64,000 bases of DNA from NCBI RefSeq assembly GCF_017603825.1, contig NZ_CP072014.1, positions 2,604,001 to 2,668,000 of the forward strand. Reading direction: 5' to 3'. A model generated the notes under the pieces. The model saw nothing but the letters and a program-made list of their open reading frames with translations, was not told the origin of the DNA and did not search any database. The stretch comes from Arthrobacter crystallopoietes. Lineage in GTDB: Bacteria; Actinomycetota; Actinomycetes; Actinomycetales; Micrococcaceae. The first letter of the stretch is position 1. Each line of letters begins with the position of its first letter. The position numbers and the translations under genes are program-made. Below, one piece after another: positions 46,682 to 63,288 of the stretch.

Positions 46682-46691
46682 CCCCGTCGTA

Positions 46692-46729: not shown

Positions 46730-46750
46730 GTTAGAGAATTCGGTTGTCCG

Positions 46751-47017
46751 TTAGTGGACTGCCTTCCGTTTGGTGATAAAGCCCCAAATCAGCAGTACAA
46801 CAAGGGCGCCGGCGATGGCAACGAGCCAGGTCTGGATGCTCCAGAACTCTTCCAGCCCAACGTTGAAGACGGCACTGCCAACCCAGCCGCCCAGCAGGGC
46901 GCCGACGACGCCGAGTACTAGGGTTGCGATCCAGCCGCCGCCTTGGTCACCCGGCAGGATCAGCTTGGCGATAGCGCCCGCAATTAGTCCGAGAATAAGA
47001 AAAGCAAGAAAACCCAT
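46751..47017 (-). CDS. GlsB/YeaQ/YmgE family membrane protein
   Basis: An 88-residue protein with three hydrophobic helices and the family motif GLIAGAIAKLILPGDQGGGWIATLVLGVVGALLGG. The family (transglycosylase-associated proteins) is often stress-induced in bacteria; biochemical role unknown. It is transcribed alone and converges on the MHS gene over the shared terminator. Confidence 0.92.
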   Translation of the reverse strand: MGFLAFLILGLIAGAIAKLILPGDQGGGWIATLVLGVVGALLGGWVGSAVFNVGLEEFWSIQTWLVAIAGALVVLLIWGFITKRKAVH

Positions 47018-47274
47018 GATGCTCTCTCCTTACGGTGATCAATGGTCCCCCGACGGGATTGCCGGGGAGTGTCCCTTACCAATTCCCACGGTACAACAAA
47101 GCATGCTTATTGTATTGTCTTTTTGCCAAAGGAATTTTGCGCGGCGACGGTTTGCCGCCGCTTGTTGGGGAAGGGGGGGCATGAGCCAGCGCGTGCGTTA
47201 ACCAGCGGTGCCCGGTCCGTTAACGGAACCGGGCACCTCGGGCAGGAGCTGCTGGGGCAGGAGCGGCGCCGCTC

Positions 47275-49059
47275 CTAGTCGATGATGGCGGCCAGTACGG
47301 CGCCGGCAGAGACCGTGGCGCCCGGCTTCGCCGTCAGTTTTGCGATGGTGCCGGCCTTGTGGGCTGTCAGCGGTTGCTCCATCTTCATGGCCTCAAGCAC
47401 GACGACGAGATCGCCTTCCGCGACCGTGTCGCCTTCGCTGACGGCCACCTTCACGATGGTGCCCTGCATGGGTGAAGACAGGTCATCCCCGCTGGCCGTC
47501 GGGCCAGCCGAGCCGCCGGAACGCCCGCGGCCGCGCTTGGGCTTGCCGTTGGACTTGGTGGCGGCGCCGCCGGAGGTGTTCAGGCCCGCGGGAAGGACGA
47601 CTTCCAGCCGTTTGCCACCCACCTCAACGGTGACGCGCTGGCGTTCGCCGTCGTCGTCGGTGGTTGTTGACGCCGCGGCATCGAAGGCGGGAATGTCGTT
47701 GACGAACTCCGTCTCGATCCAGCGGGTGTGGACCTTGAAGGGCTCCAGTGGGTCTGCCGGGGCGAAGTCCGGATCTGCCGTCACAGCGCGGTGGAACGGC
47801 AGGACGGTCGGCATGCCGCCGATCTCCATCTCCTCCAGGGCGCGGCGGGCGCGCTGCAGGGCCTGGTTGCGGCTGGCGCCGGTGACCACGAGCTTGGCGA
47901 GCAAGGAGTCGAAGTTGCCGCCGACCACTTCGCCGGCTTCCACGCCGGAGTCCACGCGAACGCCGGGTCCGGTGGGCAGCTTCATCGATTCCACGGTGCC
48001 CGGGGCCGGCATGAAGTTGCGGCCGGCATCCTCGCCGTTGATGCGGAACTCGAAGGAGTGGCCGCGGATCTCGGGATCGCCGTAGCCCAGTTCCTCGCCG
48101 CAGGCCAGCCGGAACTGTTCGCGGACCAGGTCCACGCCGGCAACCTCCTCGGAAATGGGGTGCTCCACCTGCAGGCGCGTGTTGACCTCAAGGAAGGAAA
48201 TGGTGCCGTCCTGGCCGACCAGGAATTCGCACGTGCCGGCGCCCTGGTACTTGGCCTCGAGCATGATGGCCTTGGACGCCTCGTAAAGCCGGTAGTTCTG
48301 GTCCGCGCTCAGGAACGGGGCGGGGGCCTCCTCGACGAGCTTCTGATTGCGGCGCTGCAGCGAGCAGTCGCGGGTGGAAATAACGACGACGTTGCCGTGC
48401 GCATCCGCGAGGCATTGGGTTTCCACATGCCGGGGGGCATCAAGGAAGCGCTCGACGAAGCACTCGCCCCGGCCAAAGGCCGCGGTGGCCTCGCGGACCG
48501 CGGAGTCGAAGGCCTCGGGGATCTCGTCCCGGTCGCGGACCACTTTGATGCCGCGGCCGCCGCCGCCGTAGGCAGCCTTGATAGCCAGCGGGAGGCCGTA
48601 GGTGTCCGCGAATGCGAGAACCTCGTCGACGCCCTGGACGGGATCTGCGGTGCCGGGAACAAGGGGGGCGCCAACCTTTTCGGCGATGTGCCGGGCCTGG
48701 ACCTTGTCGCCGAGTTTGGCGATGGCGTCGGGGGAGGGGCCGATCCAAATCAGCCCGGCGTCGATGACCCGCTGCGCGAAGTCCGCGTTTTCGGCGAGGA
48801 AGCCATAGCCGGGGTGGACGGCGTCGGCACCGGAGGCTACGGCCACGTCGAGCAGCTTGTCCATGGCCAGATAGGACTCCGTGGCGGTACTGCCGCCCAG
48901 GGAGTAAGCCTCGTCGGCCAGACGGACATGCAGCGCATCCCGGTCAGGCTCTGCGTAAACGGCGACGGAGGCGAGGCCTTCATCCCGTGCGGCTCGGATT
49001 ACGCGGACGGCAATTTCACCACGGTTGGCGATCAGTACCTTGGTGATGCGCTGGGTCAT
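47275..49059 (-). CDS. acyl-CoA carboxylase alpha subunit (biotin carboxylase and BCCP)
   Basis: A 594-residue fusion. The biotin carboxylase part (1-450) has [18 protein letters not shown], the ATP-grasp loop [13 protein letters not shown], and [12 protein letters not shown] Gly/Arg/Ser linker (about 485-515) precedes the carrier domain, whose EAMKME holds the lysine to be biotinylated (about 559). It supplies carboxybiotin to the carboxyltransferase for malonyl- or methylmalonyl-CoA, feeding lipid synthesis. It corresponds to AccA3 of mycobacteria. ATG 49059 follows AGGAG. A TTTGTAG-N5-CTACAAA palindrome lies about 90 nt upstream. Confidence 0.95.
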
Positions 49060-49362
49060 TCAAAGCTCCTTCTATCCTTGAGGAGCCTAGCGCGGTTTTG
49101 CGGGTATCGCCCAATAACCATGCCATTTGTGCGTGTGTGGGCGTGATTCTTTGTAGGTGTTCTACAAAAACGATCGGTGCCGGAAACTGGCGCGGGGCCG
49201 CTCCTCCGCCAGGAAGCCGTAGTCCCACTGTGACGATAATCCCTCAAGGCCGATTCACCGCTTTAGGTTCCGCCGGCCGTTCGCCTCCTGTATACCTGTC
49301 GGTAAACCCGTAGGGAAAATCAAGCGCGCCAACGCGGTGCCCTTGGGAGCAAAGGATGGCAG
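49060..49362. other. divergent region between acc alpha and the Ser/Thr kinase gene
   Basis: A 303-bp non-coding region. The notable element is the palindrome at 49150-49168. I see no small gene. The kinase start is preceded by AAAGGA at 49351-49355. Confidence 0.5.
49150..49168. promoter_or_regulatory. TTTGTAG-N5-CTACAAA operator-like palindrome (acc alpha)
   Basis: Perfect 7-5-7 inverted repeat about 90 nt upstream of the acyl-CoA carboxylase alpha gene. Over 21 bases (49150-49170) it matches 61616-61636, upstream of the beta subunit gene, at 16 positions, and its TGTAG-N5-CTACA core recurs at 61694-61708 before birA. A common regulator is likely; its identity is unknown. Confidence 0.65.
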
Positions 49363-50493
49363 TTGGGGGACGTGTATTTGGGGCAGTCTCTGCCAGTTAG
49401 CCTGGGTGGCCGTTACAAGCTTCAGGAACTGATCGGGCGGGGCGGATCCGCAGCGGTCTATAAGGCCATGGACGACGTGCTGGGCCGGTTCGTTGCGGTT
49501 AAGGTGTTCCGCCCCGATGTCCGCGACGAAGGGGAGCTGCGGCGTCAGGAGGCAGAGGTGCAACTGCTGTCGACATTCAACCACCCCGGCCTGGTGACTG
49601 TTTATGATGCCGGTACGGAGCAATCATCCTCTGATGGGACCCGCTCCTTTGTCGTGATGGAGCTCGCGCAAGGCAAGGACCTGCGAAACCGGCTTCGGTT
49701 GGGGCGGCTGGAGGCCAGGGATGTAGCAAAGATCGGTCACCAACTGGCGGCAGCACTTCACTATGTGCACGGTCGGGGTGTGATCCACCGCGACCTCAAA
49801 CCGGCGAACATCATGCTCGCGTTCGATGCGGATACGGGTGAGGCCCGGGCCAAGCTCATGGATTTCGGCATTGCCCGCGTCATTGAAGGAACACGGCTGA
49901 CCGCCACCGGGCAGACTGTCGGAACCGCAACCTATTTGAGCCCGGAGCAGGCCCAGGGCGGCGCCCTGGGAACATCCAGTGATATCTACTCCCTTGGACT
50001 GGTCCTGTTGGAGTGCCTGACCGGTCACGTCGAGTTCCCCGGCAGTCCGGTGGAATCGGCCGTGGCCCGCCTGCAACGTGGACCGGTTATCCCAGCGGAG
50101 ATCGGCCCCGGATGGGTTCGCCTTCTTTCAAAGATGACTGCGATGGATCCGGTTGCCCGGCCGGACGCCGCCGAAGTAGCTGCCGCGCTGGCTGATGTGG
50201 ATAGCAGGGCGTGGGAGCCGGAGCCCGCCTTGGCGCCGGAGGAAAGGCCGGAGGGCAGTACGGCGGCCATGCCGGTTTCCGTGAAGGCAAGACCTCTGCG
50301 GTCACGGCGCATGCGCAAGCTTGCCGTCTGGACAATAGCTGCAGTCCTCGTGCTCGCGGGTATTGCGGTCTTTCTACCTTCGCTAGTGTCCAGTCCGCAA
50401 GAGGCTCAGACGTCTGACCCGACACCATCGCCGGTCCTGACGGGAGAGCTCGAAGAGCACATGCGGAACCTTGAACGGAACCTTGTCCCATGA
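49363..50493 (+). CDS. membrane serine/threonine protein kinase
   Basis: A 376-residue Hanks-type kinase. The catalytic domain covers about 18-275: glycine loop GRGGSAAVY, K47 (VAVK), catalytic HRDLKPAN with D144, DFG at 167-169, and SPEQ. A juxtamembrane segment, one helix (about 320-340) and only about 35 outer residues follow, so there are no PASTA repeats to sense peptidoglycan. TTG 49363 is the start with AAAGGA; GTG 49372 is an alternative. The stop overlaps the next gene (ATGA), so the kinase and the lipoprotein are produced together. Confidence 0.92.
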   Translation: MGDVYLGQSLPVSLGGRYKLQELIGRGGSAAVYKAMDDVLGRFVAVKVFRPDVRDEGELRRQEAEVQLLSTFNHPGLVTVYDAGTEQSSSDGTRSFVVMELAQGKDLRNRLRLGRLEARDVAKIGHQLAAALHYVHGRGVIHRDLKPANIMLAFDADTGEARAKLMDFGIARVIEGTRLTATGQTVGTATYLSPEQAQGGALGTSSDIYSLGLVLLECLTGHVEFPGSPVESAVARLQRGPVIPAEIGPGWVRLLSKMTAMDPVARPDAAEVAAALADVDSRAWEPEPALAPEERPEGSTAAMPVSVKARPLRSRRMRKLAVWTIAAVLVLAGIAVFLPSLVSSPQEAQTSDPTPSPVLTGELEEHMRNLERNLVP

Positions 50494-51188
50494 AGAAGCC
50501 ACAAAGTATTCGCCGTTTCGCAGCTGCTGCGGCGGTTTCTGTCACGCTGCTCGGCAGCGCCTGCACGGCGCCGCCACAGCTGAATGCGGGAGCCGCAGAA
50601 AGAATGCAGGCCCTCGCAGCCGAGGTCCGGACCGACGCGGCAGCCGGGGATTATGAGAAGGCGATCGAGGGCCTGGGCGACCTGACGGAGGAATTGAGAC
50701 AGGCGGCAGGGGACGGGGACGTCTCGTTCGCCCGCTACCAGAGCATCGAGGCGGCCATCGAGCAACTCAGCGCGGACCTCGCCGCGGAACGGGCTGCTGC
50801 GTCGCCCCCTTCGGAAGCGGCGAACCCGGAAACGGAAGCGGCTGCCCCGAAGGCGCCGAACACTGTTGGGAATACGGAATCGACCCAGGGGCAGCCGGTT
50901 CCTCCTCCGCCGGCCCCGGCGCCCGCACCACCTCCCACCGTCTCCGCCCCGGACCCTTCCGAAACCTCGCCCGTACCGGCTGAGCCGGACAGCGGTCAGG
51001 GAAACAACAACCAGCAGGACAATGCACTTCCAGGCAAGGGCAACAACGCCATCAAGGAGGACCACGGAGCCGACCAGGATGATGCGACAGGCCCGGGTGG
51101 ATCCGGGAACGACAGGAACAACGGAGGGGCTGGGACAGGTCCCGGTTCCGGCCACGGCAAGGATAATTCCGGCAGGGACGACAACTGA
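50490..51188 (+). CDS. proline-rich exported lipoprotein linked to the kinase
   Basis: A 232-residue protein. Lipobox LGSAC puts the anchor at Cys 25. A helical section (about 30-105, AERMQALAAEVRTDAAAG ... IEAAIEQLSADLAAERAA) could form a coiled coil; the rest is low complexity, rich in Pro, Ala, Gly, Asn and Asp. No enzyme motif. Overlap with the kinase stop suggests it is the outer partner or substrate anchor of that kinase. This is inferred from gene arrangement only. Confidence 0.82.
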   Translation: MKKPQSIRRFAAAAAVSVTLLGSACTAPPQLNAGAAERMQALAAEVRTDAAAGDYEKAIEGLGDLTEELRQAAGDGDVSFARYQSIEAAIEQLSADLAAERAAASPPSEAANPETEAAAPKAPNTVGNTESTQGQPVPPPPAPAPAPPPTVSAPDPSETSPVPAEPDSGQGNNNQQDNALPGKGNNAIKEDHGADQDDATGPGGSGNDRNNGGAGTGPGSGHGKDNSGRDDN

Positions 51189-51235
51189 TTCCCGAAGGGG
51201 CTCTAGGGGCAGAGCGCCCGGGTTGCAGCCGGCTG

Positions 51236-51901
51236 TTATTGCCCCCAGAGGTCCGTAATCTGTACGTTGGCACTCGCCAGCAGGTGTCGCAGGGTGGAAA
51301 CCGAAAGACCGACGACGGCGTGCGGGTCGCCGTCGACGCGCTCGATGAAGGCCCCGCCCAGCGAGTCGATGGTGAAGGAACCGGCTACCTGAAGCGGTTC
51401 GCCAGTGGCGATGTAGGCGTCGATCTCTGCATCGCTGAGCTTGGCGAAGTACACGCCAGCCGAGGCAACCGCACCAATGGTGGCGCCTGATCCGACGGTG
51501 CTATCCGAAGCCGCATCCCCGTCGGCGTCCGCGGGCACATCCCTGCAGTCGACCAGCCAGTGCCCGGTGTGCAGCACGCCGTGGCGGCCGCTCATCCGGT
51601 GCCAGCGCTCGCGGGCAATCTCGGGTTCGTACGGCTTGCCGTGTGGTTCGCCGTCGAGTTCGAAGACGGAGTCGCAGCCCAGGACCAGCGCACCCTCCGC
51701 CTCGGGGAGGCTGGCGACGGCTTCAGCTTTGGCCCGTGCGAGCACCAGGGCGGTGTCATGCGGGTCTGTCAGCCCGTAGTGCGATGTGACCGCATCCTCG
51801 TCGACGTCGGAGACGAGAATGCTGTGGGAGATGCCGGCGTCGGTGAGCAGTTTGGTGCGGGCGGGGGAGGCGGAGGCGAGAATCAGGCGCAAATAAGTCA
51901 C
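51236..51901 (-). CDS. maf: Maf family nucleotide pyrophosphatase
   Basis: A 221-residue enzyme hydrolysing non-canonical or pyrimidine nucleoside triphosphates. Motifs: LILASASPARTKLLTDAG, SDVDEDA, and GCDSVFELDGEPHGKP; also SGRHGVLHTGHWLVDCRD. An insert of about 25 residues rich in Asp, Ala, Gly and Ser (about 132-156) is absent from typical members and is probably a surface loop. GTG 51901 gives the usual N-terminus; a 30-residue longer frame begins at 51991. Maf sits in the carboxylase locus in mycobacteria too. Confidence 0.9.
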   Translation of the reverse strand: MTYLRLILASASPARTKLLTDAGISHSILVSDVDEDAVTSHYGLTDPHDTALVLARAKAEAVASLPEAEGALVLGCDSVFELDGEPHGKPYEPEIARERWHRMSGRHGVLHTGHWLVDCRDVPADADGDAASDSTVGSGATIGAVASAGVYFAKLSDAEIDAYIATGEPLQVAGSFTIDSLGGAFIERVDGDPHAVVGLSVSTLRHLLASANVQITDLWGQ

Positions 51902-52287
51902 GTCACTAAGCGTAATGCCCGCATCAGCAAGGCCCACAGCAGCCAGCGAAGAACGCCGTCGCTTCCGCTGCAGCCCGGAAGCAGCACACAAACCGACATT
52001 TAGAATGTTGATTTATCACCATGCCCCTCCGGACCGTATGATCTCCACGGGGATTCTTCCGGCTGCCCCCTTGCACAGCAGAGTGGCGAAGGCAGCGGAA
52101 TGGACCGGTGCACCGTTGGGGGCTGTATCGTTCCGGGCCCGGTGGATCGTTGGGGGATACACCGTTCCTGAATAGCAAAACGCTCGGCCGGATGGATTTC
52201 CCGGCCGAGCGTTTTCTTGTATGTACTGCTGTCATTGGTTCTGTCCGCCTGGGGCGTCGAGCTTAGCCCCGCGTCCCCAGCAAGCGG
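51902..52287. other. intergenic region between maf and the symporter gene
   Basis: A 386-bp region. It contains a strong bidirectional terminator (52177-52215) that ends the symporter transcript. A rightward frame of 45 codons (ATG 52037 to TAG 52175) stops just before that terminator, but it lacks a ribosome binding site and I do not call it a gene. Confidence 0.5.
52177..52215. terminator. bidirectional intrinsic terminator
   Basis: AAAACGCTCGGCCGG (52177-52191) pairs perfectly with 52201-52215 around a 9-nt loop, with four T on each reading direction. It lies 73 nt past the stop of the leftward symporter gene. Confidence 0.9.
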
Positions 52288-53733
52288 TTAGTTCCTTGAG
52301 TCGACCAGGTCTTCCTCGCGGCGGTCGCTACTTGCCTCGGCTCCGGTTTCTGTCTGGCCTACCCCGTCCGCGTCCACAGCGGCGTCGTCGGTAAACGGAT
52401 CGCCGGTGCGCTTCGCATTGTAGAGGCTCAGGTCCAGGATGCCCTGGCGCTTGGAGACGATCGTGGGGACCACGGTCTGGCCGGCCACGTTGACCGCGGT
52501 GCGGCCCATGTCCAGGATCGGGTCGATGGCCAGCAGCAGGCCGATGCCTTCCAGCGGCAGGCCCAGCGTGGACAGCGTCAGGGTCAGCATGACGGTAGCG
52601 CCGGTGGTTCCGGCCGTCGCGGCCGAGCCAAGCACGGCCACCAAAGCGATCAGCAGGTAGTGCGTGAAGTCGAGTTGCACACCGAAGAACTGGGCGACGA
52701 AGATCGCGGCGATCGCCGGGTAGATCGAGGCGCAGCCGTCCATTTTGGTCGTCGAGCCCAGCGGCACGGCGAAGGACGCGTAGGCCCGGGGTACGCCCAG
52801 GTTCCGCTCGGTCACCCGCTGGGTCAGCGGCATGGTGCCCATGGAAGAACGCGACACGAAGGCCAGCTGGATGGCGGGCCACGCGCCGGAGAACCACTGC
52901 TTGACGGACAGCCCGTGGGCGCGGATCAGCACCGGGTAGACCACAAAGACCACCAACGCCAGGCCCACGTAGATGGACAGCGTGAACATGGCCAGCGAAC
53001 CCATGGTGTCCCAGCCGTAGGTGGCAACGGCCTTGCCGATCAGGCCGACGGTGCCGATCGGGGCCACGCGGATGATCCACCACAGCACCTTCTGGATCAC
53101 GGCCAGCGCGGAAGCGTTGAGCTTCAGGAAGGGCTCGGCGGGCGCGCCCACCTTCAGGGCGGCGATGCCGACGGCGATGGAGATGACCAGGATCTGCAGC
53201 ACGTTGAAGCTGACGCTCGTGGTCATGTCGCCGGATTCGGCCACCTTGGTGCTGGCTTCCAGCCCCAGGAAGTTGCCCGGGAATAGCCCGGTCAGGAACG
53301 CCCACCAGTCACCGGTGCGCCCGGTGTACTCGCCGGGCACTTCCCCGGCGGCGCTGGCGCCGGGCCGCATGACGGTGCCCAGCACCATGCCGATCACCAC
53401 GGCGATGAAGGCGGTGATGGCGAACCAGAGCAGCGTGTTCCAGGCCAGCTTGGCCGCGTTGGAGACCGCGCGGAGATTGGCAATGGAGCTGACCACGGCG
53501 GTGAAAATCAGCGGCACCACGGCCGCCTTCAGCAGCGAGATGTAGCTGGAGCCGATGGTCGTCAGGGTCTCGGTGAGCCAGTTCGGTTCGCCGGCGGCCG
53601 AGTCGCCCATGTTCTTGGCCACGAGACCAAGGATGAGGCCGGCAATCAGCGCGGCAATGATCTGCGGGCCGAAGGCGGTGGCCCACGAGGGCAGTCTCCG
53701 GGCCTGTTTTTCGGGGCTGGTAGCAGTAGTCAC
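52288..53733 (-). CDS. dicarboxylate/amino acid:cation symporter
   Basis: A 481-residue transporter of the DAACS (GltP/DctA) family, with eight helices and two re-entrant loops. The serine-rich hairpin (FVSRSSMGTMPLT), TTKMDGCASIYPAIAAIFVAQFFGV and VLGSAATAGTTGATVMLTL are conserved. It imports C4-dicarboxylates or acidic amino acids with Na+ or H+; sequence does not separate these. The C-terminal tail of about 40 acidic residues is cytoplasmic. GTG 53733 is the start. Confidence 0.92.
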   Translation of the reverse strand: MTTATSPEKQARRLPSWATAFGPQIIAALIAGLILGLVAKNMGDSAAGEPNWLTETLTTIGSSYISLLKAAVVPLIFTAVVSSIANLRAVSNAAKLAWNTLLWFAITAFIAVVIGMVLGTVMRPGASAAGEVPGEYTGRTGDWWAFLTGLFPGNFLGLEASTKVAESGDMTTSVSFNVLQILVISIAVGIAALKVGAPAEPFLKLNASALAVIQKVLWWIIRVAPIGTVGLIGKAVATYGWDTMGSLAMFTLSIYVGLALVVFVVYPVLIRAHGLSVKQWFSGAWPAIQLAFVSRSSMGTMPLTQRVTERNLGVPRAYASFAVPLGSTTKMDGCASIYPAIAAIFVAQFFGVQLDFTHYLLIALVAVLGSAATAGTTGATVMLTLTLSTLGLPLEGIGLLLAIDPILDMGRTAVNVAGQTVVPTIVSKRQGILDLSLYNAKRTGDPFTDDAAVDADGVGQTETGAEASSDRREEDLVDSRN

Positions 53734-53802
53734 CCGAAGACCATAGAGGGCGCGTATACCAAGCCAAAGGCAGCGTTGCGAAATATTACATCGACATACG
53801 AC

Positions 53803-53835
53803 GGCGGACCGTCACCTTTCCCGTGACGGCCCGCC
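53803..53835. terminator. stem-loop after the DUF885 gene
   Basis: GGCGGACCGTCAC (53803-53815) pairs with GTGACGGCCCGCC (53823-53835) with one mismatch. No T-run; located between the DUF885 stop and the symporter start. Confidence 0.45.
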
Positions 53836-53898
53836 GATGTACGGGGTGTGTGAAGTTATTCCCGGAGCCCGTGTGAGGAAGATCGCCGGCGGCCCGGC

Positions 53899-55638
53899 CT
53901 AGGCCTCGGACGGGGCCGTGTTGTCGCCCAGCAGCGCGCGGCGCAGGGTGTCCAGCCCAACCGAGCCCAGGTTGAGGGCCTCGCTGTGGAACCGCTTGAT
54001 GTCGAAGGACCCGCCCTCGCGGCGGCGGCGCTCGTCGCGGATCTGCTCCCACAGCCGCTGGCCCAGCTTGTAGGAGGGCGCTTGCCCCGGCCAGCCGAGG
54101 TAGCGGGTGAACTCGAACTTGAGCTGGCCCTCGCTGATGGCGATGTTCTTCTTGAGGAACTCGTAGCCCTTCTCCGGCGTCCATGTCCCTGAACCCCAGC
54201 GCGCAGGCACCTCAAGTTCCAGGTGGACACCGATGTCGAAGACCACGCGGGCGGCGCGCATGCGCTGGGCATCCAGCATGCCCATCTTGTCACCCGGATC
54301 GGACAGGTAGCCCAGGTCCTCCATGAGTCGCTCGGCGTACAGTGCCCAGCCTTCGCCGTGGCCGGACACCCAGCAGATGTTCCGGCGCCAGTTGTTCAGG
54401 AGCTCGCGGCGGTAGGTCGCCGTCGCAATTTGGAGGTGGTGGCCGGGCACACCCTCGTGGTAGACGGTGGTGGTTTCCTTCCACGTGGTGAAGGTGTCCT
54501 CGCCCTCGGGCACGGACCACCACATGCGGCCCGGGCGGGAAAAGTCGTCGGACGGCCCGGTGTAGTAGATGCCGCCTTCCTGGGTGGGCGCGATGCGGCA
54601 TTCGAGCCGGCGCATCGGTTCGTAGATGTCGAAGTGCGTGCCGGAGAGTTCCGCCACCGCCCGGTCCGAGAGCTTTTGCATCCAGGCCTGCAGCGCGTCC
54701 GTGCCGTGCAACTGCCGCGACTCGTCTGTATCCAGCGCGGCCATGGCCTCTTCGATGGAAGCGCCCGGCTTGATCTGTTGGGCCACGGCTTCCTGCTCGG
54801 CGATGATGCGGTCCAGTTCCTCCACGCCCCACTGGTACGTCTCTGCAAGGTCGATCGTGGCGCCGAGGAAGCGGCGGGACATCAGCGAGTAGTGCTCCCG
54901 GCCGACGGCGTCCTTCTCGGGCGCATCCGGCAGCAGCTCGTTTTCGAGGAATGCAGCCAGCGACGCGTAGGCGCGGGAAGCCGTCTCGGCGCCGGCAGCC
55001 AAGCGTTTGCGCAAGTCCTCGGGCAGCCCGCCGTCGCCGTCGTCAATCCGGGCGGAAGCGGCCAGCGAATGGAAGAAGCCGTCCTCGGCTGCGTACGCCC
55101 TGGTTTGCTCGATGACGGTTCGGATCTGGCGCTTGGCCGCCACCAGCCCGCGTTCCTTCGCCGCGCGGAGCGAGCTGGCATAGCCACTGATGGCGTCCGG
55201 CACGTTGCTCATCCGGCCGGCGATGTTGTTCCAGTCTTCCGCCGTGGCCGTGGGCATCAGGTCGAAGATGGCACGGATGTCCTGTGAGGGCGAGGCGATG
55301 TTGTTCAGGTCCGCCAGGTCCAGGCCGGTCTCGTGGATCTCCAGCTCCAGCCCCAGCCGCTCGCGCATGGCATCCAGGGTTACACGGTCCACATCGTCCG
55401 TGGGCTCCAGGTCCTCCAGCCGGCGCAGTGCCTCGCGGGTGCATTCGGCCAGCGCCTCGGCACCGGCGGGGGAGTAATCCGGGTATTCGGTTTCGTGGCC
55501 GGGGATGCCCAGCGACGTGGCGAGCGAGGGGTTCATCTCCAGCAGCGACTCGGTGAAGGAGTCCGCCACCGCGTCGATCGCAGAGGGGTTCCGCACGGCC
55601 GTGTTATCCAGGGTGGTTTCAGATGTCTGGTTAGTCAC
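53899..55638 (-). CDS. DUF885 family protein
   Basis: A 579-residue mostly helical protein of the DUF885 family, thought to be zinc metallopeptidase-like. The characteristic motif is YHEGVPGHHLQ (about 393-403), an HExxxxHH arrangement, followed by HGEGWALYAERLMEDLG, in which a Glu can complete the metal site. Related M. tuberculosis and Arthrobacter proteins are annotated as putative oligopeptide-type enzymes; substrate unknown. No signal peptide, so it is cytoplasmic. GTG 55638 is the start. Confidence 0.9.
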   Translation of the reverse strand: MTNQTSETTLDNTAVRNPSAIDAVADSFTESLLEMNPSLATSLGIPGHETEYPDYSPAGAEALAECTREALRRLEDLEPTDDVDRVTLDAMRERLGLELEIHETGLDLADLNNIASPSQDIRAIFDLMPTATAEDWNNIAGRMSNVPDAISGYASSLRAAKERGLVAAKRQIRTVIEQTRAYAAEDGFFHSLAASARIDDGDGGLPEDLRKRLAAGAETASRAYASLAAFLENELLPDAPEKDAVGREHYSLMSRRFLGATIDLAETYQWGVEELDRIIAEQEAVAQQIKPGASIEEAMAALDTDESRQLHGTDALQAWMQKLSDRAVAELSGTHFDIYEPMRRLECRIAPTQEGGIYYTGPSDDFSRPGRMWWSVPEGEDTFTTWKETTTVYHEGVPGHHLQIATATYRRELLNNWRRNICWVSGHGEGWALYAERLMEDLGYLSDPGDKMGMLDAQRMRAARVVFDIGVHLELEVPARWGSGTWTPEKGYEFLKKNIAISEGQLKFEFTRYLGWPGQAPSYKLGQRLWEQIRDERRRREGGSFDIKRFHSEALNLGSVGLDTLRRALLGDNTAPSEA

Positions 55639-55815
55639 AAGCCGAGCCTACCTGCCATCGGTTGCCTGCGGACACCGCCTGTGGGTAACGCAGGCCTTCC
55701 GTGTCCGGATTGTGCCCGGCGCGGGCCTGTTGTTTGCCGCCGGGTGAACGTAGGTTGAATGCATGGGGCCGGCCGGAGCGGCGCGGCAGGGAAGACAAGA
55801 GGGCGGTGCAGGGAT

Positions 55816-57075
55816 GTGCGCAACAGAACGACGGCGGTGCTCGCTGCGCTCGGGCTGGTGCCGGTTTTGACGCTGGCCGGGTGTAGCGCGCCGGAGCCGG
55901 AACTGCTGGCGGCGGACGGGGTTCAACAGCAGTCGGTCGCTCTGCATGAGTATCCGGAGGCGGCGGCATCGCTGCAGGACGCCACGCTCAAACTCGGTGC
56001 TGCGATGCTTGCCGGACGGCCGGAGGCAAACCAGGTCACCAGCCCGGCGAGCCTGCTCTACGCGCTCGCCATGCTACGTGCCGGCGCGGGCACCACGACG
56101 GCTGCGGAAATGGACGCTGCGCTCGGCCTGCCTGCCCAGGGCCGGGACGAAGCGATGAACGCGCTGCTCACGGCGTGGCAGGAGCACGACGGCGATCCCG
56201 GCTCCGTGGACGAGGACGAGCCTCCGGTCACGCCGCTGCTGCACCTGGCCAACGGGGTGTTCGTCGATGCGGGCACGCCTACCGGCGAGGAGTACCTGGC
56301 CAGACTGGCGGAGCACTACGGCTCGGGCGTCTATCCGGTGGACTATGCGGATCCGGCCACCAAGGACAAACTGGACGCCTGGGTCGACCACAACACCGGC
56401 GGCCGGATCACGGAAGCGCCCGGCGGGTACGACGAGGACAACACGCTGACCCTGCTGAACGCGGTGTACTTCGCGGCGGCCTGGGCGGATCCGTTCTCGC
56501 CGTCGTCAACCAAGACCGAGGACTTCACCTTGCTGAACGGGGAAGTGATCCAGGCGGAAGCAATGGGGAAACTCCTGCGCGCCGACTACGCCCGCGGCGA
56601 GGGCTGGCAGGGGATGGACCTGCCCTATAACGAAGGCTTCCTGATGCGCCTGGTCCTGCCGGACGAAGGTTCGCCGGTGCTGGACGAAGCAGCGCTGGCA
56701 ACAGTGAACAGGGCGATGGCTGCGGCCAATCCGGCGAGGGTGTCCCTGGGTCTGCCGAAGTGGGAGCACGACTACACCCAGAACCTGATTCCGGTGCTGC
56801 GCGGCCTGGGACTGGCGGAGACTCTCGGCCCGGCGCCGGACCTCCACGCCATCCAGCCGGAGGCCCGGGTCACCGGGGCGACGCAGCAGGCCAACATCAC
56901 CGTGGGGGAGAAGGGCACCGTGGCGGCCGCGGTTACGCAGCTGGATGTGATGGCCGGCTCGCTCCCGCCGCCGCCGGATGTGAAGCTGGACTTCAACCGC
57001 CCGTTCCTTTACCAGATCATCCACGCAGAGACGGGGCTGCCGCTCTTCCTGGGCACCGTGATGGATCCGCGCTGA
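55816..57075 (+). CDS. lipoprotein serpin
   Basis: A 419-residue serine protease inhibitor. Lipobox LAGC at the end of a 20-residue signal places it on the outer membrane face. The serpin fold is clear: NQVTSPASLLYALAMLRAGA, TLLNAVYFAAAWADPF, GMDLPYNEGFLMRLVLPDE and the C-terminal FNRPFLYQIIH. The reactive-loop hinge GEKGTVAAAVTQ has the small residues needed for loop insertion, so it should be inhibitory. Loop residues LDVMAGSLPPPP contain the scissile bond. GTG 55816 gives a standard lipoprotein start; ATG 55759 would add 19 residues. Confidence 0.92.
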   Translation: MRNRTTAVLAALGLVPVLTLAGCSAPEPELLAADGVQQQSVALHEYPEAAASLQDATLKLGAAMLAGRPEANQVTSPASLLYALAMLRAGAGTTTAAEMDAALGLPAQGRDEAMNALLTAWQEHDGDPGSVDEDEPPVTPLLHLANGVFVDAGTPTGEEYLARLAEHYGSGVYPVDYADPATKDKLDAWVDHNTGGRITEAPGGYDEDNTLTLLNAVYFAAAWADPFSPSSTKTEDFTLLNGEVIQAEAMGKLLRADYARGEGWQGMDLPYNEGFLMRLVLPDEGSPVLDEAALATVNRAMAAANPARVSLGLPKWEHDYTQNLIPVLRGLGLAETLGPAPDLHAIQPEARVTGATQQANITVGEKGTVAAAVTQLDVMAGSLPPPPDVKLDFNRPFLYQIIHAETGLPLFLGTVMDPR

Positions 57076-57082
57076 CGGCGGC

Positions 57083-57994
57083 TCAACGGTAGCCGGTGGT
57101 GTCCGCTGGTTTGTCCGGGTCCTGGACCTCGCGCATGTACCGCCAGGCGTCGGGCTGGCTGCCGTCGACGTCGGTGAAGCCGTAGACTTTGGCCAGCTTG
57201 CCGCTGGAGAGTGACTTCCCGTTCCAGCGGGAGACCTCGGGATCCTGGGCGAGCGCCGCGACGGCCCGGCCCACGTAGGCCGGGCTCTCGGAAATGGCGA
57301 AATGCGGGATGCGCGTGGTGGCATCGCGCCAGTTCGCTTCGGTCACGCCGAATTCGTCCAGCATCGCCTCGGACCGCAGCCAGCCCGGTGTCAGCGAGAG
57401 CGCCGTGGCGCCGTGGGGCTTTAGGTCGTGCGCCAGCAGGAAAGCCATCCGGTTCACCGCCGCCTTGGCCAGATCGTAGAAGAAGGAGGCCCGGTAGTTC
57501 TCCGCGTTGTATTCGTCCGTACCGTCGGTGACTTCGATGGCCAGTCCGCCCGGCTGCCGGATCAGCAGCGGCAGGGCGAAGTGGCTGGTGATGGCGTGGG
57601 TGTCCACGCCGAGCCGGAGCATGTGGAGGCCAACATCCAGCGAGGACTCCCACACGGATTTGTCCCACTCCATGACGGTGGCGCCCCAGATGTCGTTGAC
57701 GAGGATGTGCAGGCCGCCCTGCTCGGCGTCAATACGCGAGACAAGGGAGCGCACCTCGTCCGGCACGAGGTGGTCCACCCTGACCGCGATTCCGTGGCCG
57801 CCGGCCTCCTCGACCAGTTGCGCGGTCTCCTCGATGGTTTCCGGCCGGTTCATCTCCGACGGCTGGTCCCGGGTGGTCCGCCCGGTGACGTAGACGGTGG
57901 CGCCGGCCGCACCGAGCTGGACAGCGATCCCCCGGCCCGCGCCCCTGGTCCCTCCGGCGACGAGAGCGACTTTGCCTGTCAACGATGTTTGCAT
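57083..57994 (-). CDS. short-chain dehydrogenase/reductase
   Basis: A 303-residue SDR oxidoreductase. The cofactor motif is ALVAGGTRGAGRGIA, then NDIWG in place of NNAG, and the catalytic Y-x-x-x-K lies in FFYDLAKAAVNRM. It probably uses NADP given R at the end of strand 2 (TGRTT). The substrate is unknown. It is convergent with the serpin, with only 7 nt between the stop codons. ATG 57994 starts the protein. Confidence 0.9.
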   Translation of the reverse strand: MQTSLTGKVALVAGGTRGAGRGIAVQLGAAGATVYVTGRTTRDQPSEMNRPETIEETAQLVEEAGGHGIAVRVDHLVPDEVRSLVSRIDAEQGGLHILVNDIWGATVMEWDKSVWESSLDVGLHMLRLGVDTHAITSHFALPLLIRQPGGLAIEVTDGTDEYNAENYRASFFYDLAKAAVNRMAFLLAHDLKPHGATALSLTPGWLRSEAMLDEFGVTEANWRDATTRIPHFAISESPAYVGRAVAALAQDPEVSRWNGKSLSSGKLAKVYGFTDVDGSQPDAWRYMREVQDPDKPADTTGYR

Positions 57995-58105
57995 GCGGCC
58001 GACGTTAGTCCTGCGTCAGGTGCCGGGCAACAGCGCTCCCGGCCGCGCCCCTTGGCCGGCAGCTCTTTTGCTGGATGCCTGCCCTGCCAAAGAAGGCCCC
58101 GGAGG

Positions 58106-58573
58106 TTACTCCGGCAAGTGCGGGAAGTCGCTGCCGAGCAGCGTCCGGCTGATCGCGGCCAGTTGGTGGACCTGTTCCTCGTCGAGGCGGTCGAAGACGG
58201 CGGCCCGGACCGCGGCTACATGGCCCGGTGCGGCGGCATCGATTTTGGCCATGCCGGCTTCGGTGATGCGGGCCAGCACCACGCGGCGGTCGTTGGCGTC
58301 CATGGCCCGGGTGACATAGCCGTCTTTTTCCAGCCGGGCGACAATCCGGGAAAGCCGGGACTGCGAGGTATTGGTCAGCTCAGCCAGTTTGCTCATCCGG
58401 CATTCGCGGGTGTCGGACTCCGAAAGCATGGCCAGCACCATGTAGCCGGCGAACGTCAGGTCCTCGTCGCGCTGCAGTTGGGACTCCAGCGTGGCCGGAA
58501 GCCGGAACATCAGCGAGGCAACGGCCAGCCATGCTCTGCGTTCCTCGGGATTCAACCACTGCGGCTCTGTCAT
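58106..58573 (-). CDS. MarR-family transcriptional regulator
   Basis: A 155-residue winged-helix repressor-type protein: MSKLAELTNTSQSRLSRIVARLEKDGYV is the helix-turn-helix and AMDANDRRVVLARITEAG the wing. MarR proteins bind as dimers and are released by small phenolic or oxidant ligands. It is divergent from the NmrA-like gene, with an operator-like palindrome between them, so autoregulation and control of that neighbour are likely. Confidence 0.92.
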   Translation of the reverse strand: MTEPQWLNPEERRAWLAVASLMFRLPATLESQLQRDEDLTFAGYMVLAMLSESDTRECRMSKLAELTNTSQSRLSRIVARLEKDGYVTRAMDANDRRVVLARITEAGMAKIDAAAPGHVAAVRAAVFDRLDEEQVHQLAAISRTLLGSDFPHLPE

Positions 58574-58588
58574 GGAACAACTCTACCG

Positions 58589-58626
58589 GGAATTCACTTG
58601 ACGCTTCAAATAATTCCGCCTACATT
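58589..58626 (+). promoter_or_regulatory. promoter of the NmrA-like gene with overlapping MarR-type operator
   Basis: -35 TTGACG (58598-58603), 17-nt spacer, -10 TACATT (58621-58626). The palindrome TTGA-CGCT-TCAA (58598-58609) covers the -35, flanked by GGAATT (58589) and AATTCC (58612), nearly symmetric. It lies 16 nt from the marR start codon, so one bound dimer could repress both genes. Confidence 0.6.
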
Positions 58627-58661
58627 AGTTTCGGTTGCAAGTAATCAACGCAAGGAGCAAC

Positions 58662-59522
<861 letters not shown>

Positions 59523-59551
59523 TCCACGGACCAAGTCCCGCACAAAGACCG

Positions 59552-59589
59552 AAGACCGGCAGCTCGTTGGGGGCTGCCGGTCTTCTTTT
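59552..59589 (+). terminator. intrinsic terminator of the NmrA-like gene
   Basis: AAGACCGGCAGC (59552-59563) pairs perfectly with 59573-59584 around a 9-nt loop, followed by CTTTTT. Confidence 0.9.
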
Positions 59590-59627
59590 TACCGGAAGGT
59601 GTGCCGCTTTACCGGAAGGTGTGCCGC
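59588..59627. repeat. 20-bp perfect tandem duplication at the end of accE
   Basis: TTTACCGGAAGGTGTGCCGC occurs twice with no spacer (59588-59607 and 59608-59627). The second copy holds the last codons (R-H-T-F-R) and stop of the leftward accE; the first is an exact copy lying just past the stop. Confidence 0.85.
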
Positions 59628-59842
59628 CAGGCGCCGGGGCCGTGCTGGACCACCGGGCGCAGCAATTCACGACGGCGGGAGCTGCGGCGGCGCGGTTTGC
59701 CGCCGGTTTCCTCCTCGGAAGAGGAGGTCTGCAGCGCGAGAACGACGGCGGTGAGCGCCGCGAGTTCTTCGGCGCTGGGATTTCCTTTGGCAACAGTAAA
59801 CAACGGGGCTTGCTCGGACTGGGTCTCGGCTTCTGCGTGCAT
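59609..59842 (-). CDS. acyl-CoA carboxylase epsilon subunit
   Basis: A 77-residue protein. APLFTVAKGNPSAEELAALTAVVLAL is the AccE signature, followed by a basic segment (KPRRRSSRRREL). The epsilon subunit stabilises the alpha-beta carboxylase complex in actinobacteria and raises its activity. ATG 59842 follows GAGGAACGC; a GTG at 59956 that overlaps the beta-subunit stop would add 38 residues that do not resemble the family. The 3-prime end is duplicated (see repeat). Confidence 0.9.
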   Translation of the reverse strand: MHAEAETQSEQAPLFTVAKGNPSAEELAALTAVVLALQTSSSEEETGGKPRRRSSRRRELLRPVVQHGPGAWRHTFR

Positions 59843-59952
59843 GCGTTCCTCATTTCCGGACCAGCGCGTAGCGGCCTGGTCGGGGCTGGACCAGCGGGTA
59901 TGGCCGGCGGCTGTGCCCGTCGGGCGGATAGGTGTCCTTGCGTGGCCGGCGG

Positions 59953-61548
59953 TCACAGCGGGATGTTTCCGTGTTTCTTATGCGGCATGGTGGCGCGCTT
60001 GTCGCGCAGTGCCCGCAGGCCACGGACAATCTGCAGCCGCGTGTCGGACGGCGCCACCACCGCGTCCAGGTAGCCGAGCTCGGCCGCCTGGTAGGGATTT
60101 AGCAGTTCTTCCTCGTACTGGGTAACGATCTCCTGGCGGCGGGCTTCAACATCGCCGCCCTCGGCCTGGACGGCGGCAAGGTCCCGGCGGTAAAGAATGT
60201 TGACCGCACCCTGGGCACCCATGACGCCGATCTGGGCGGTGGGCCAGGCAATGTTCAGGTCCGCGCCGAGCTTCTTGGAACCCATGACAATGTAGGCGCC
60301 GCCGTAGGCCTTGCGGGTGATGACGGTCAGCTTGGGCACGGTGGCCTCGGCGTAAGCATAGAGCAGCTTCGCGCCGCGGCGGATGATGCCGTTGAACTCC
60401 TGGTCCTTGCCGGGCAGGAAGCCGGGGACGTCCACCAGCGTCAGGATGGGAATGTTGAACGCATCGCAGTGCCGGACAAAGCGGGCGGCCTTTTCCGAGG
60501 CGTTGATGTCCAGGGTACCGGCGAACTGCATGGGCTGGTTGGCGACGACGCCAACGGTGTGCCCCTCTACCCGGCCGTAACCGATGATGACGTTGGGCGC
60601 GTAGAGGGACTGCATCTCCAGGAAATGGCCGTCGTCCATCACGTGCTCGATGACCGTGCGCATGTCATACGGCTGGTTGGCCGAATCCGGAATGAGCGTG
60701 TCCAGTTCAAGGTCCGCTTCGGTGGTCTCGAGTACCTCGTCGAAGTCCAGCAGCGGGGCTTCGGTGAGGTTGTTCGAAGGCAGGAAATCCAGCAGTTCCC
60801 GGACGAACTCGATGGCGTCGGCTTCATCGGCGCCCAGGTAGGTGGCGGTGCCGGTGGTGGCGTTGTGCTGCCGGGCGCCGCCAAGGGTCTCCATGTCCAC
60901 TTCTTCGCCGGTGACCGTCTTGATGACGTCCGGGCCGGTGATGAACATGTGCGAGGTCTTGTCCACCATGACCACGAAGTCCGTCAGCGCGGGGGAGTAG
61001 GCGGCACCGCCGGCGCACGGGCCCATGATCAGCGAGATCTGGGGAACGACGCCGGAAGCGGCCACGTTGTTGCGGAAAATGTCCGCGAACATGGCCAGCG
61101 AGGCGACGCCTTCCTGGATGCGGGCACCGCCGCCGTCGTTAATCCCGACGACCGGGCAGCCGTTGCGCAGCGCGAACTCCTGCACCTTGACGATCTTTTC
61201 GCCGTTGACCTGGCTCAGGGAACCGCCGTAGACGGTGAAGTCCTGGCTGTAGAGCGCCACCAGCCGGCCGTCTACCGTGCCGTAGCCGCTGACCACGCCG
61301 TCGCCGAGCGGCTTCTTCTTCTCCATCCCGAAGGCGGTGGAGCGGTGCGTGGCCAGCGCGTCGAACTCTACGAAGGAGCCCTCGTCCACCAGCAGTTCGA
61401 TGCGCTCGCGGGCGGTGTGTTTGCCGCGCGCGTGCTGCTTTTCAATGGCTTCGGCGCCGGAGGGCTGCATGGCCTGGGCCTGGCGGCGGCGGAATTCCGC
61501 GATCTTGCCGGCAGTGGTCGACAGATCAAGATCTGTTTCGAGGCTCAT
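59953..61548 (-). CDS. acyl-CoA carboxylase beta (carboxyltransferase) subunit
   Basis: A 531-residue carboxyltransferase of the propionyl/acetyl-CoA type, matching AccD5 of mycobacteria. Two crotonase-like halves are visible. The acyl-CoA oxyanion segment [14 protein letters not shown] and the carboxybiotin site [27 protein letters not shown] are conserved, with [18 protein letters not shown] and [19 protein letters not shown]. It accepts CO2 from the biotin of the alpha subunit. Upstream of the ATG (68-88 nt) lies the second TGTAG-type element. AccE follows in the same direction. Confidence 0.95.
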
Positions 61549-61615
61549 GAAATCTCCGGATTCTGCGCGCTTGGCGTTGCTGGTGGCGGTGCTTGGTGTA
61601 CCCGCGGGGAGGCGT

Positions 61616-61636
61616 TAAGTAGGTTTCGTACAAAAA
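61616..61636. promoter_or_regulatory. operator-like site upstream of the acc beta gene
   Basis: AGTAG-N5-GTACA followed by AAAA, a near-copy (16 of 21 bases) of the palindrome upstream of the alpha gene at 49150-49170. It lies 68-88 nt before the start of the beta subunit. Confidence 0.55.
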
Positions 61637-61693
61637 GTCTGCCGACCGCGGCACTGTTTCACCAAGTCTAGTGAGCGCCGGTGGGTCAATAGC

Positions 61694-61708
61694 TGTAGCA
61701 ATCCTACA
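61694..61708. promoter_or_regulatory. TGTAG-N5-CTACA operator-like site upstream of birA
   Basis: Perfect 5-5-5 inverted repeat (TGTAG 61694-61698, CTACA 61704-61708), the same core as at 49152-49166. It is 72 nt before the birA start, mirroring the distance of the other site from the beta gene. Confidence 0.55.
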
Positions 61709-61779
61709 ATTTCGTGCGCAGACATTTTGCCGCCCGCGCGTCCGGTGCCTAAACGGGCCGCTCTGCGTAGGATGGATTC

Positions 61780-62667
61780 ATGAGCCAGAGTTTCTCCGAC
61801 GTTGACCGACCGGCGCTGGATTTCGAAGGACTCAGCGATGCGCTCTGTGCTCCGCTGGGACCCTACCGGAAGCTGGAACTGGTGGAGTCCACCGGCTCCA
61901 CGAACTCCGACCTGGCCACCAAGGCCAGCGGAGACAAGGTGGGTTTCTCCGATCTGAGTGTCCTGGTGGCCGAAGAGCAGACCCAGGGCCGCGGCCGGCT
62001 GGACCGGCAGTGGACTGCCCCGCCGCGTTCCTCCGTGATCGTCAGCGTGCTGCTGCGCCCTTTCAACCAAGCCGGGAATCCCGTGCCTACACAGAGCTAC
62101 GGCTGGTTCTCGCTGCTGGCGGCCATGTCCCTGGCCGAGGCGCTAGGCGAATACGCGCAGCTGGAGGCCAAGGTCAAGTGGCCCAATGACGTGCTGGTCA
62201 GTGGCCGGAAGATCTCGGGCATCCTCGCGCAGATGGTGAGCTACCCGGACGGCACGCCGCCCGCCGTCGTTATTGGCAGCGGCGTGAACGTGACCCTGGG
62301 CAAGGAGGATCTGCCCGTTCCCACGGCCACCTCCGTGGCGCTGGAAAAGGGCGCGACGACGGACCGCACCATCCTGCTGATGTCCTACCTGCGGGTTTTT
62401 GCCCAGCGCTACCGCCAGTTCTGTAACGTCAACGGGGACCCGAAGGCGCAGTGGAAGGACGGCAGCAGCCTGCTGTCCCGGCTGCAGAAGGTCATGGTCA
62501 CGCTCGGCCAGCAGGTGCGTGCGGAGTTGCCGAACGGCGGGGAGATCATCGGCGAGGCGTTCGGGCTGGACAGCTTCGGCGCGCTCAAGGTGCGTGAAGC
62601 GGACGGCACCGAACATGTAGTGTCCGCCGGCGACGTCGTACATCTGCGCCCCTACGAAGGTTCATGA
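61780..62667 (+). CDS. birA: biotin--acetyl-CoA-carboxylase ligase
   Basis: A 295-residue ligase without the N-terminal helix-turn-helix of E. coli BirA, hence not itself a repressor. The biotin/ATP loop is GRGRLDRQW; KWPNDVLV and KISGILAQM contain the catalytic lysines; STGSTNSD begins the domain. It attaches biotin to the carrier lysine of the alpha subunit at 47-49 kb. Divergent from the acc beta gene across a 231-bp region carrying two operator-like sites. Confidence 0.94.
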   Translation: MSQSFSDVDRPALDFEGLSDALCAPLGPYRKLELVESTGSTNSDLATKASGDKVGFSDLSVLVAEEQTQGRGRLDRQWTAPPRSSVIVSVLLRPFNQAGNPVPTQSYGWFSLLAAMSLAEALGEYAQLEAKVKWPNDVLVSGRKISGILAQMVSYPDGTPPAVVIGSGVNVTLGKEDLPVPTATSVALEKGATTDRTILLMSYLRVFAQRYRQFCNVNGDPKAQWKDGSSLLSRLQKVMVTLGQQVRAELPNGGEIIGEAFGLDSFGALKVREADGTEHVVSAGDVVHLRPYEGS

Positions 62668-62703
62668 TTTGCCCCACTCAACCACCCCGGTCCCGGAGCT
62701 GCG

Positions 62704-63288
62704 GTGCGGCTGAAACTGGACCCGGGGGAGCGGGCAATCGTCATCACCCGTCCCCAGGCAAGGCGCCTGTTCTGGCCTGCCATCGCGTTCCTGGCAGTGC
62801 TGGCCGCCGGCGGTTTCGGCGCCGGCTGGCTGAGCCGGGAAGACCTGCCCGCCTGGCTGGCGGACTGGCGTATGCCCCTGCTGCTGATCGGGCTGCTGCT
62901 GGCGGTGCTGCTGGCAGGCAAAATGTCGGTGCTGCCGCTGCTGCGGTGGCTGGGCACCAGGTACCTGCTCACCAACCGGCGGCTGATTATCCGCCAGGGC
63001 TGGGGCAGGCGGCGCGAACACCAGCTGCTGCTGGCATCGATTTTCGGGCTGGCCACCGAGCAGAGCCTGCTGCAGCGGATGCTGCGCAGCGGGCAGCTGA
63101 GGGCGGACGTGGGCTACGGGCGGTATTCGGTGCTGCCGGACGTGCCGGAGGTGGTTCGGTTCCGTTCACTGGTGGTGAAGGCCATCGAGGATCTGCCGCG
63201 GACTGCGATGTTTGATGGGGTAGACATGGAAAGATTGCAGGAGATGGAATACGGCGAGGAAGGTTGGCAAGGCGATGACCAGCAATAG
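62704..63288 (+). CDS. PH-domain membrane protein
   Basis: A 194-residue protein with two transmembrane helices (about 24-44 and 58-79) followed by a bacterial PH-like domain (LGTRYLLTNRRLIIRQGWGRRREHQLLL). GTG 62704 follows GGAGC. It overlaps the start of the cyclase gene by 14 nt. Such proteins often stand beside birA in actinobacteria; the function is unknown. Confidence 0.85.
   Translation: MRLKLDPGERAIVITRPQARRLFWPAIAFLAVLAAGGFGAGWLSREDLPAWLADWRMPLLLIGLLLAVLLAGKMSVLPLLRWLGTRYLLTNRRLIIRQGWGRRREHQLLLASIFGLATEQSLLQRMLRSGQLRADVGYGRYSVLPDVPEVVRFRSLVVKAIEDLPRTAMFDGVDMERLQEMEYGEEGWQGDDQQ

What the first reader, a model, noticed from the sequence alone, without database searches (positions are those of the whole stretch)
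49150..61708. Shared TGTAG-N5-CTACA operator ties the split acyl-CoA carboxylase genes and birA into one regulon
A perfect palindrome (TTTGTAG-N5-CTACAAA, 49150-49168) lies before the alpha-subunit gene. Twelve kb away, the beta/birA divergent region has a near-copy (61616-61636, 16 of 21 bases the same) 68 nt before the beta gene and a perfect TGTAG-N5-CTACA (61694-61708) 72 nt before birA. Each of the three transcripts that make the biotin-dependent carboxylase therefore has one site. This BirA lacks a DNA-binding domain, so another regulator, perhaps TetR- or GntR-like, should read the site. I know of no described regulator with this box for these genes.
Basis: partly seen in the sequence, partly recalled or inferred. 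Interest (0 to 1): 0.78.

Follow-up and report, generated by a model that had tools for sequence, protein, structure and literature searches.

The report
FasR operators before acyl-CoA carboxylase genes
A short DNA mirror sequence in front of the genes that make malonyl-CoA is very probably the binding site of FasR, a known switch for fatty-acid synthesis, so this soil bacterium and its relatives seem to run the making and the use of malonyl-CoA from one switch.

Summary
The box is real and conserved. TGTAG-N5-CTACA occurs exactly three times in the 4.38-Mb genome: before the carboxylase alpha gene, in the beta/birA gap, and between a PucR-type regulator gene and fabD. Among 1024 palindromes of that shape it ranks first in relatives' promoters: fabD 43/58, alpha 32/61, beta 27/57. 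It fits the published MabR recognition sequence TTTTGT-N9-ACAAAA, and the gene beside fabD is a MabR-family protein. The likely reader is therefore FasR, not a TetR or GntR protein. The one genus found without FasR lacks the sites. birA is not an independent target: both gap sites fit the beta promoter (operator 21 bp before its -10 box in 42/48), while the distance to birA's -10 varies from 57 to 170. Sites also precede bioY in some genera. Paired beta operators keep helical phase. Outside the family fabD keeps the site, but the carboxylase genes mostly do not. A known regulator with an apparently undescribed, lineage-specific extension; binding was not tested.

The parts
49150..49168 (.). 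FasR operator of the alpha gene (TTTGTAGGTGTTCTACAAA), fabD-matrix score 29.1, the highest in the window
49084..49089 (-). inferred -10 box of alpha (TAGGCT), 60 bp after the operator
   Evidence: position worked out by hand from the sequence
47275..49059 (-). alpha subunit gene: biotin carboxylase with biotin carrier domain
61665..61670 (-). inferred -10 box of beta (TAGACT), 21 bp after the distal operator
   Evidence: position worked out by hand from the sequence
61616..61634 (.). proximal (weaker) FasR operator of beta, score 14.2, 76 bp from the distal one
59953..61548 (-). beta subunit gene: carboxyltransferase
61768..61773 (+). inferred -10 box of birA (TAGGAT), 57 bp after the distal beta operator; spacing not conserved
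61780..62667 (+). birA, biotin protein ligase without DNA-binding domain; neighbour of the beta operator, not shown to be a target

Best explanation
The box is the operator of FasR, the PucR-type fatty-acid regulator (orthologue of Streptomyces FasR and mycobacterial MabR) encoded directly before fabD elsewhere in this genome (G000:C1:3552704-3554014). In this family FasR has the two acyl-CoA carboxylase subunit genes as core targets, so that making malonyl-CoA (carboxylase) and using it (fabD operon) are governed together, with lineage-specific additions (bioY biotin uptake, a short-chain reductase gene, perhaps birA where it abuts beta). Most likely a FasR dimer binds TTTGTAG-N5-CTACAAA and helps RNA polymerase: at beta centred about 42-43 bp before the inferred start, where the -35 box would be; at alpha about 82 bp before it. 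A long-chain acyl-CoA probably tunes binding. Shown by sequence: conservation, geometry, family membership of the regulator, match to the published box. Inferred: that FasR binds these sites, the start sites, the sign of control and the ligand.
For: 3 of 3 exact genome sites lie before alpha, beta/birA and fabD, the last 12 nt after the fasR stop codon. TGTAG-N5-CTACA ranks first of 1024 palindromes in fabD 43/58, alpha 32/61 and beta 27/57 promoters, runner-up at most 2. A matrix built from fabD sites only recovers alpha 55/61 and beta 48/57 above 99.9% of dinucleotide shuffles. Named relatives, which overlap the unnamed set: beta 79 of 80, alpha 43 of 43 with score above 14. Published MabR box TTTTGT-N9-ACAAAA. 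The protein matches both solved MabR halves, 9f80 at 2e-52 and 9fb1 at 4.6e-20. The genus without a FasR match (3 genomes) has no site within 2 mismatches at alpha, beta or birA. Operator to -10 spacing: beta 21 in 42/48, alpha 59-60 in 47/55. MabR is an activator whose DNA affinity rises with C18, C20 and C22 acyl-CoA, not with C16.
Against: No binding or expression data. Loss of FasR with loss of sites is one event in one genus. The motif is not enriched genome-wide over its reversed control. 6 of 61 alpha and 9 of 57 beta promoters score below the cut; three of each are the FasR-less genus, the rest keep FasR. I found no -10 box in the fabD promoter. The start sites that give -42 and -82 are inferred from -10 boxes. 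Another PucR-type protein with the same box was not excluded.
Confidence: 0.86

Rival explanations
1. A different regulator (TetR- or GntR-type, or another PucR-type protein) reads the acc sites; likeness to the fabD operator is convergent or reflects shared specificity.
For: The genome has seven further matches to the FasR query, the best at E 2.2e-9. In Corynebacterium glutamicum an unrelated TetR-type protein also called FasR represses accD1, fasA and fasB.
Against: The acc sites are found with a matrix trained on fabD sites alone. The box has the half-sites and spacing of the MabR box. The C. glutamicum box AAAANATGACNANNTCCTCATNTTT is different. The neighbours of the acc sites were not searched systematically for regulator genes.
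Confidence: 0.07
2. One reading: three transcripts, one site each, birA being a true member through its own site.
For: In the window the site lies 72 nt before birA, and birA carries a TAGGAT -10-like box 12 nt before its ATG.
Against: birA has an exact site in 9 of 59 genomes, each the same physical site as a beta site. Operator to -10 distance varies from 57 to 170 for birA (8 genomes) but is 21 in 42 of 48 for beta. The beta-birA gap is 1.0-1.7 kb in 33 of 55 genomes; in the one I read, a reductase gene lies in it.
Confidence: 0.12
3. Chance palindromes or a promoter feature unrelated to a regulator.
For: Not over-represented genome-wide.
Against: First of 1024 palindromes in each promoter set, near-fixed spacing to the -10 box, found in 28 to 31 genera per gene.
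Confidence: 0.01

Closest known systems
MabR (Rv2242) of Mycobacterium and its fasII operator
   Same: Same protein family and domain order (globin-like N-domain, GGDEF-like, PucR C-terminal HTH), gene beside fabD, palindrome with TTTGT and ACAAA nine bases apart.
   Different: Target reported in the passages I saw is the fasII operon. Here the box has an inner AG...CT and also stands before separate carboxylase genes.
FasR (SCO2386) of Streptomyces coelicolor
   Same: Activator beside fabD; said to recognise an inverted repeat highly similar to that of MabR, about 67 bp before the fasII start. Original paper not seen; known through citing papers.
   Different: Reported target in the passages I saw is the fabDHPF operon; no acc or biotin genes named.
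FasR (TetR family) of Corynebacterium glutamicum
   Same: Works alike: one acyl-CoA-linked regulator governs carboxylase and synthase genes together (passages).
   Different: Unrelated TetR repressor with another box (passages).
BioQ of actinobacteria
   Same: Serves biotin genes without BirA as the regulator.
   Different: TetR family, predicted box TGAAC-N3-GTTCA (passages); not this motif.

Membership tests
FasR/MabR (PucR-type) regulator | C-terminal PucR HTH plus GGDEF-like domain | tested here: met
   HTH_30 3e-18, GGDEF_2 1.7e-10
FasR/MabR (PucR-type) regulator | N-terminal globin-like domain as in solved N-MabR | tested here: met
   residues 36-183 match 9fb1, E 4.6e-20, by sequence only
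FasR/MabR (PucR-type) regulator | gene directly upstream of fabD | tested here: met
   fasR stop at L003:1489, fabD ORF from L003:1584; acyl transferase domain; fabD model matched below its cut-off, 170 against 261 bits
MabR/FasR operator | palindrome TTTTGT-N9-ACAAAA | tested here: met
   alpha site TTTGT-N9-ACAAA plus inner AG/CT, one outer base shorter; related boxes before fabD in other families
MabR/FasR operator | bound by the purified regulator | not testable with these tools
   needs a gel shift
FasR regulon: alpha | site conserved across relatives and absent where the regulator is absent | tested here: met
   55/61; 0/3 in the FasR-less genus
FasR regulon: beta | site conserved across relatives and absent where the regulator is absent | tested here: met
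   48/57; 0/3 in the FasR-less genus
FasR regulon: birA | conserved site at fixed promoter geometry | tested here: not met
   9/59 exact, all shared with beta; spacing 57-170
FasR regulon: bioY | conserved site | tested here: inconclusive
   score 14 or more in 7, 11 or more in 10, of 22 syntenic bioY promoters; neighbouring fabG1 0 of 40 at 11 or more
   the regulator gene beside the third site is PucR-type; other neighbours were not searched systematically

The most novel reading that the evidence does not exclude
In this family one acyl-CoA-responsive FasR governs malonyl-CoA supply, malonyl-CoA use and, in some genera, biotin import. At beta two helically phased operators flank the -10 box, so that two FasR dimers, perhaps as the tetramer described for MabR, could close a small DNA loop across the promoter and make the response biphasic: activation by one dimer, shut-off when both sites fill.
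Probability: 0.3. Interest if true: 0.66.

Novelty: new variant of a known kind. Interest (0 to 1): 0.52.

Why it matters
Carboxylase is the committed step of fatty-acid synthesis; what controls its genes in actinobacteria whose BirA lacks a DNA-binding domain is, to my knowledge (recalled, not searched as such), poorly known outside Corynebacterium. The regulon gives a named regulator, defined sites and a visible rewiring (widespread at fabD, patchy at acc) that gel shifts and a fasR knock-down in a harmless Arthrobacter-type strain could test directly. It may also be a lever for malonyl-CoA-based production strains.

Tried and rejected
TetR/GntR reader of the box: set aside after the third exact site proved to lie between a PucR-type gene and fabD.

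birA as an independent member: rejected on spacing and absence of a site in 50 of 59 genomes.

'Family-only wiring', my first reading after the class survey (alpha 2/28, beta 0/28 above 99.9%): withdrawn after the order survey, where 2 of 20 alpha promoters from other families score 26-29 and two more 12-14. The two class hits at alpha are in one further family (f18).

RNA element in the conserved fabD leader: RNAalifold gave no pair, and no TANNNT column reached 8 of 31. No Rfam match at gathering threshold in window 46000-64000.

Genome-wide enrichment of the motif: not found.

Rows dropped before counts: fabD was read only where a FasR locus was fetched (58 of 61). beta was missing in 4 and birA in 2 of 61. 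Class counts use at most the best 30 loci per gene out of 79 genomes, minus the two of the own family and minus any with under 150 nt upstream or, for acc, under 45% identity. The order survey used 20 of the 46 alpha places outside the family that one search lists; 27 of its 79 genomes had no match at the strict cut-off. The bioY/reductase survey read 40 of 61 genomes; bioY was found in 22 (a notebook line saying 23 is wrong). The '103' printed counts one site of G024 twice because its flank was cut; 102 is right.

Circularity: scores for fabD are circular, since the matrix was trained on fabD sites; one search searched fabD only between -95 and -75. Scores for alpha, beta, birA, bioY and the reductase are not circular.

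Unused: structure prediction and fold search were not run.
Full report
WHAT IS THERE. TTTGTAG-GTGTT-CTACAAA at 49150-49168 is a perfect palindrome; TGTAGCAATCCTACA at 61694-61708 is exact; the near-copy at 61616-61636 shares 16 of 21 bases and has two mismatches to the ten fixed bases. The genes are as described: alpha is a biotin carboxylase with a biotin carrier domain, beta a carboxyltransferase, and BirA shows ligase domains only.

IS IT MORE THAN CHANCE. The exact pattern occurs three times in the 4,381,539-base genome, the reversed control four times, so the motif is not enriched as such; at up to two mismatches it is rarer than the control (898 against 1849). I then took the 300 nt before fabD, alpha, beta and birA in 61 genomes of the family (32 genera; loci; script) and counted every palindrome of the form five-N5-five. 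TGTAG-N5-CTACA came first of 1024 in each set: fabD 43/58, alpha 32/61, beta 27/57, birA 9/59; no other exceeded 2. Of 118 exact sites in those genomes (reversed control 216), 102 are at fabD, alpha or beta. In 80 named relatives, the nearest being Arthrobacter crystallopoietes (94% identical beta), 79 of 80 beta and 43 of 43 readable alpha promoters score above 14 with the fabD matrix; some of these are the same genomes as in the unnamed set.

WHO READS IT. The protein before fabD has the PucR HTH and a GGDEF-like domain and matches both solved halves of M. tuberculosis MabR (9f80, 2e-52; 9fb1, 4.6e-20) and 3onq (2e-32). MabR's recognition sequence is given as TTTTGT(N)9ACAAAA, and Streptomyces FasR, called its orthologue, is said to recognise a highly similar repeat about 67 bp before the start of the fasII operon (passages of PMC5541348). 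The window's box is TTTGT-N9-ACAAA with an inner AG...CT. In 17 genomes outside the family the best match in the whole fabD promoter lay at -82 to -84 in every case, though with 1 to 6 mismatches of 14; 28 promoters, searched only between -95 and -75, agree. A matrix made from 86 fabD sites alone finds alpha 55/61 and beta 48/57 above 99.9% of dinucleotide shuffles. The three genomes without a FasR match belong to one genus and have no site within two mismatches at alpha, beta or birA; that is one event. Three FasR-bearing alpha promoters and six beta promoters also fall below the cut.

HOW THE PROMOTERS ARE BUILT. Anchored on the operator, beta shows a -10 box like TAGACT starting 21 bp after the operator in 42 of 48 promoters (22 bp in 3, none found in 3). 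Alpha shows one like TAGGCT 59 or 60 bp after it in 47 of 55 (none found in 8). With a start about 6-7 bp after the -10 box, the operator centre lies near -42/-43 at beta, in place of a -35 box, and near -82 at alpha. Both are common activator positions (general knowledge), and MabR is an activator (abstract of PMC5541348). birA has a -10-like TAGGAT, TAGGCT or TAAGAT before its ATG, but its distance to the operator is 57, 80, 88, 93, 97, 103, 113 or 170 bp in the eight genomes where one was found. beta and birA are divergent in 55 of 55 genomes where both were read; the gap is 1.0-1.7 kb in 33, under 400 bp in 15, and in the long gap that I read a short-chain reductase gene lies between them. 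The site therefore belongs to beta, and birA merely comes close in a minority of genomes.

PAIRED OPERATORS. 42 of 48 beta promoters with a strong site have a second one (score above 5), mostly 64 or 65 bp away, otherwise 54-56, 75-76, 87 or 98-100; in the window 76. In named relatives 60 of 79 have one, 58 at 64-65 and 2 at 76. The spacings fall on one helical face (best period 11.1, R 0.88; 0 of 2000 random sets as good, also for distinct spacings only). The species are related, so the p-value is soft. The -10 box lies between the two sites. MabR forms dimers and tetramers in solution (PMC11617747, passages), which suits a loop; the same paper finds by electron microscopy that DNA favours the dimer, which speaks against it. 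Alpha has a second site above 5 in 13 of 55, 11 of them 53-54 bp away; fabD has no such pair in phase (3 of 58, scattered).

FURTHER TARGETS. With the fabD matrix the own genome shows two more good sites among the pattern hits that I could read: score 26.3 before a reductase gene that follows a fabG1-like gene, and 20.8 before bioY, beside an ABC ATPase gene. In 40 genomes read there, the reductase site scores at least 14 in 13/40, bioY in 7 of 22 (at least 11 in 10 of 22), and the neighbouring fabG1 never reaches 11 (0/40). These are partial, lineage-specific members; biotin is the carboxylase's cofactor, which fits.

HOW WIDE. Outside the family fabD keeps the site (27 of 28 above the 99% shuffle level, matrix trained on these), but alpha has it in 2 of 28 and beta in none above 99.9% (one above 99%). 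In the same order, 2 of 20 alpha promoters score 26-29 and two 12-14. So the acc wiring is patchy: nearly fixed in this family, gained or kept in a few others. Orthology of acc genes in those surveys rests on best match only.

LITERATURE. Searches listed no paper that I recognised as placing acc, birA or bioY under a PucR-type FasR/MabR; I opened seven papers, as abstracts, passages or one section, none in full. The library lacks most subscription journals, I did not see the original Streptomyces FasR paper, and RegPrecise was not consulted, so this is weak evidence of novelty. In C. glutamicum an unrelated TetR repressor, also called FasR, governs accD1, fasA and fasB, so the logic is known with another protein.

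VERDICT. Observation confirmed; the idea of a shared carboxylase regulon supported by comparison; regulator identified with good confidence as FasR/MabR; birA as an equal member not supported. Binding, sign and ligand remain to be shown.

Noticed in passing
beta promoters of 16 of 57 family genomes, -113 to -270 (e.g. L089, L073); no exact copy in the three genomes of the window genus: A second palindrome, GTTAC-N6-GTAAC, lies upstream of the FasR site, perhaps serving a divergent gene; it resembles the AccR box GTTAA-N6-TTAAC listed in PMC10933834.
   Followed up: partly
L003:1516-1583 and relatives: A strongly conserved block GAGCTTGGT...AAACACC between the fabD operator and the fabD start; no -10 box and no RNA consensus structure found.
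   Followed up: partly
G002, G033, G059 (genus g3, 2.0-2.5 Mb): The only genus of 32 without a FasR match; its acc promoters have no FasR site.
   Followed up: partly
window 61768-61780: birA may be leaderless: a TAGGAT box lies 12 nt before the ATG, with similar boxes in relatives.
   Followed up: no
L074:432-1334: A short-chain reductase gene sits between beta and birA in this relative; the gap is too short for it in the window and in 15 of 55 genomes.
   Followed up: partly
window 49363-50493 (+): An ORF divergent from alpha starts about 195 nt from the alpha operator on its other side; whether the operator also acts on it was not tested.
   Followed up: no
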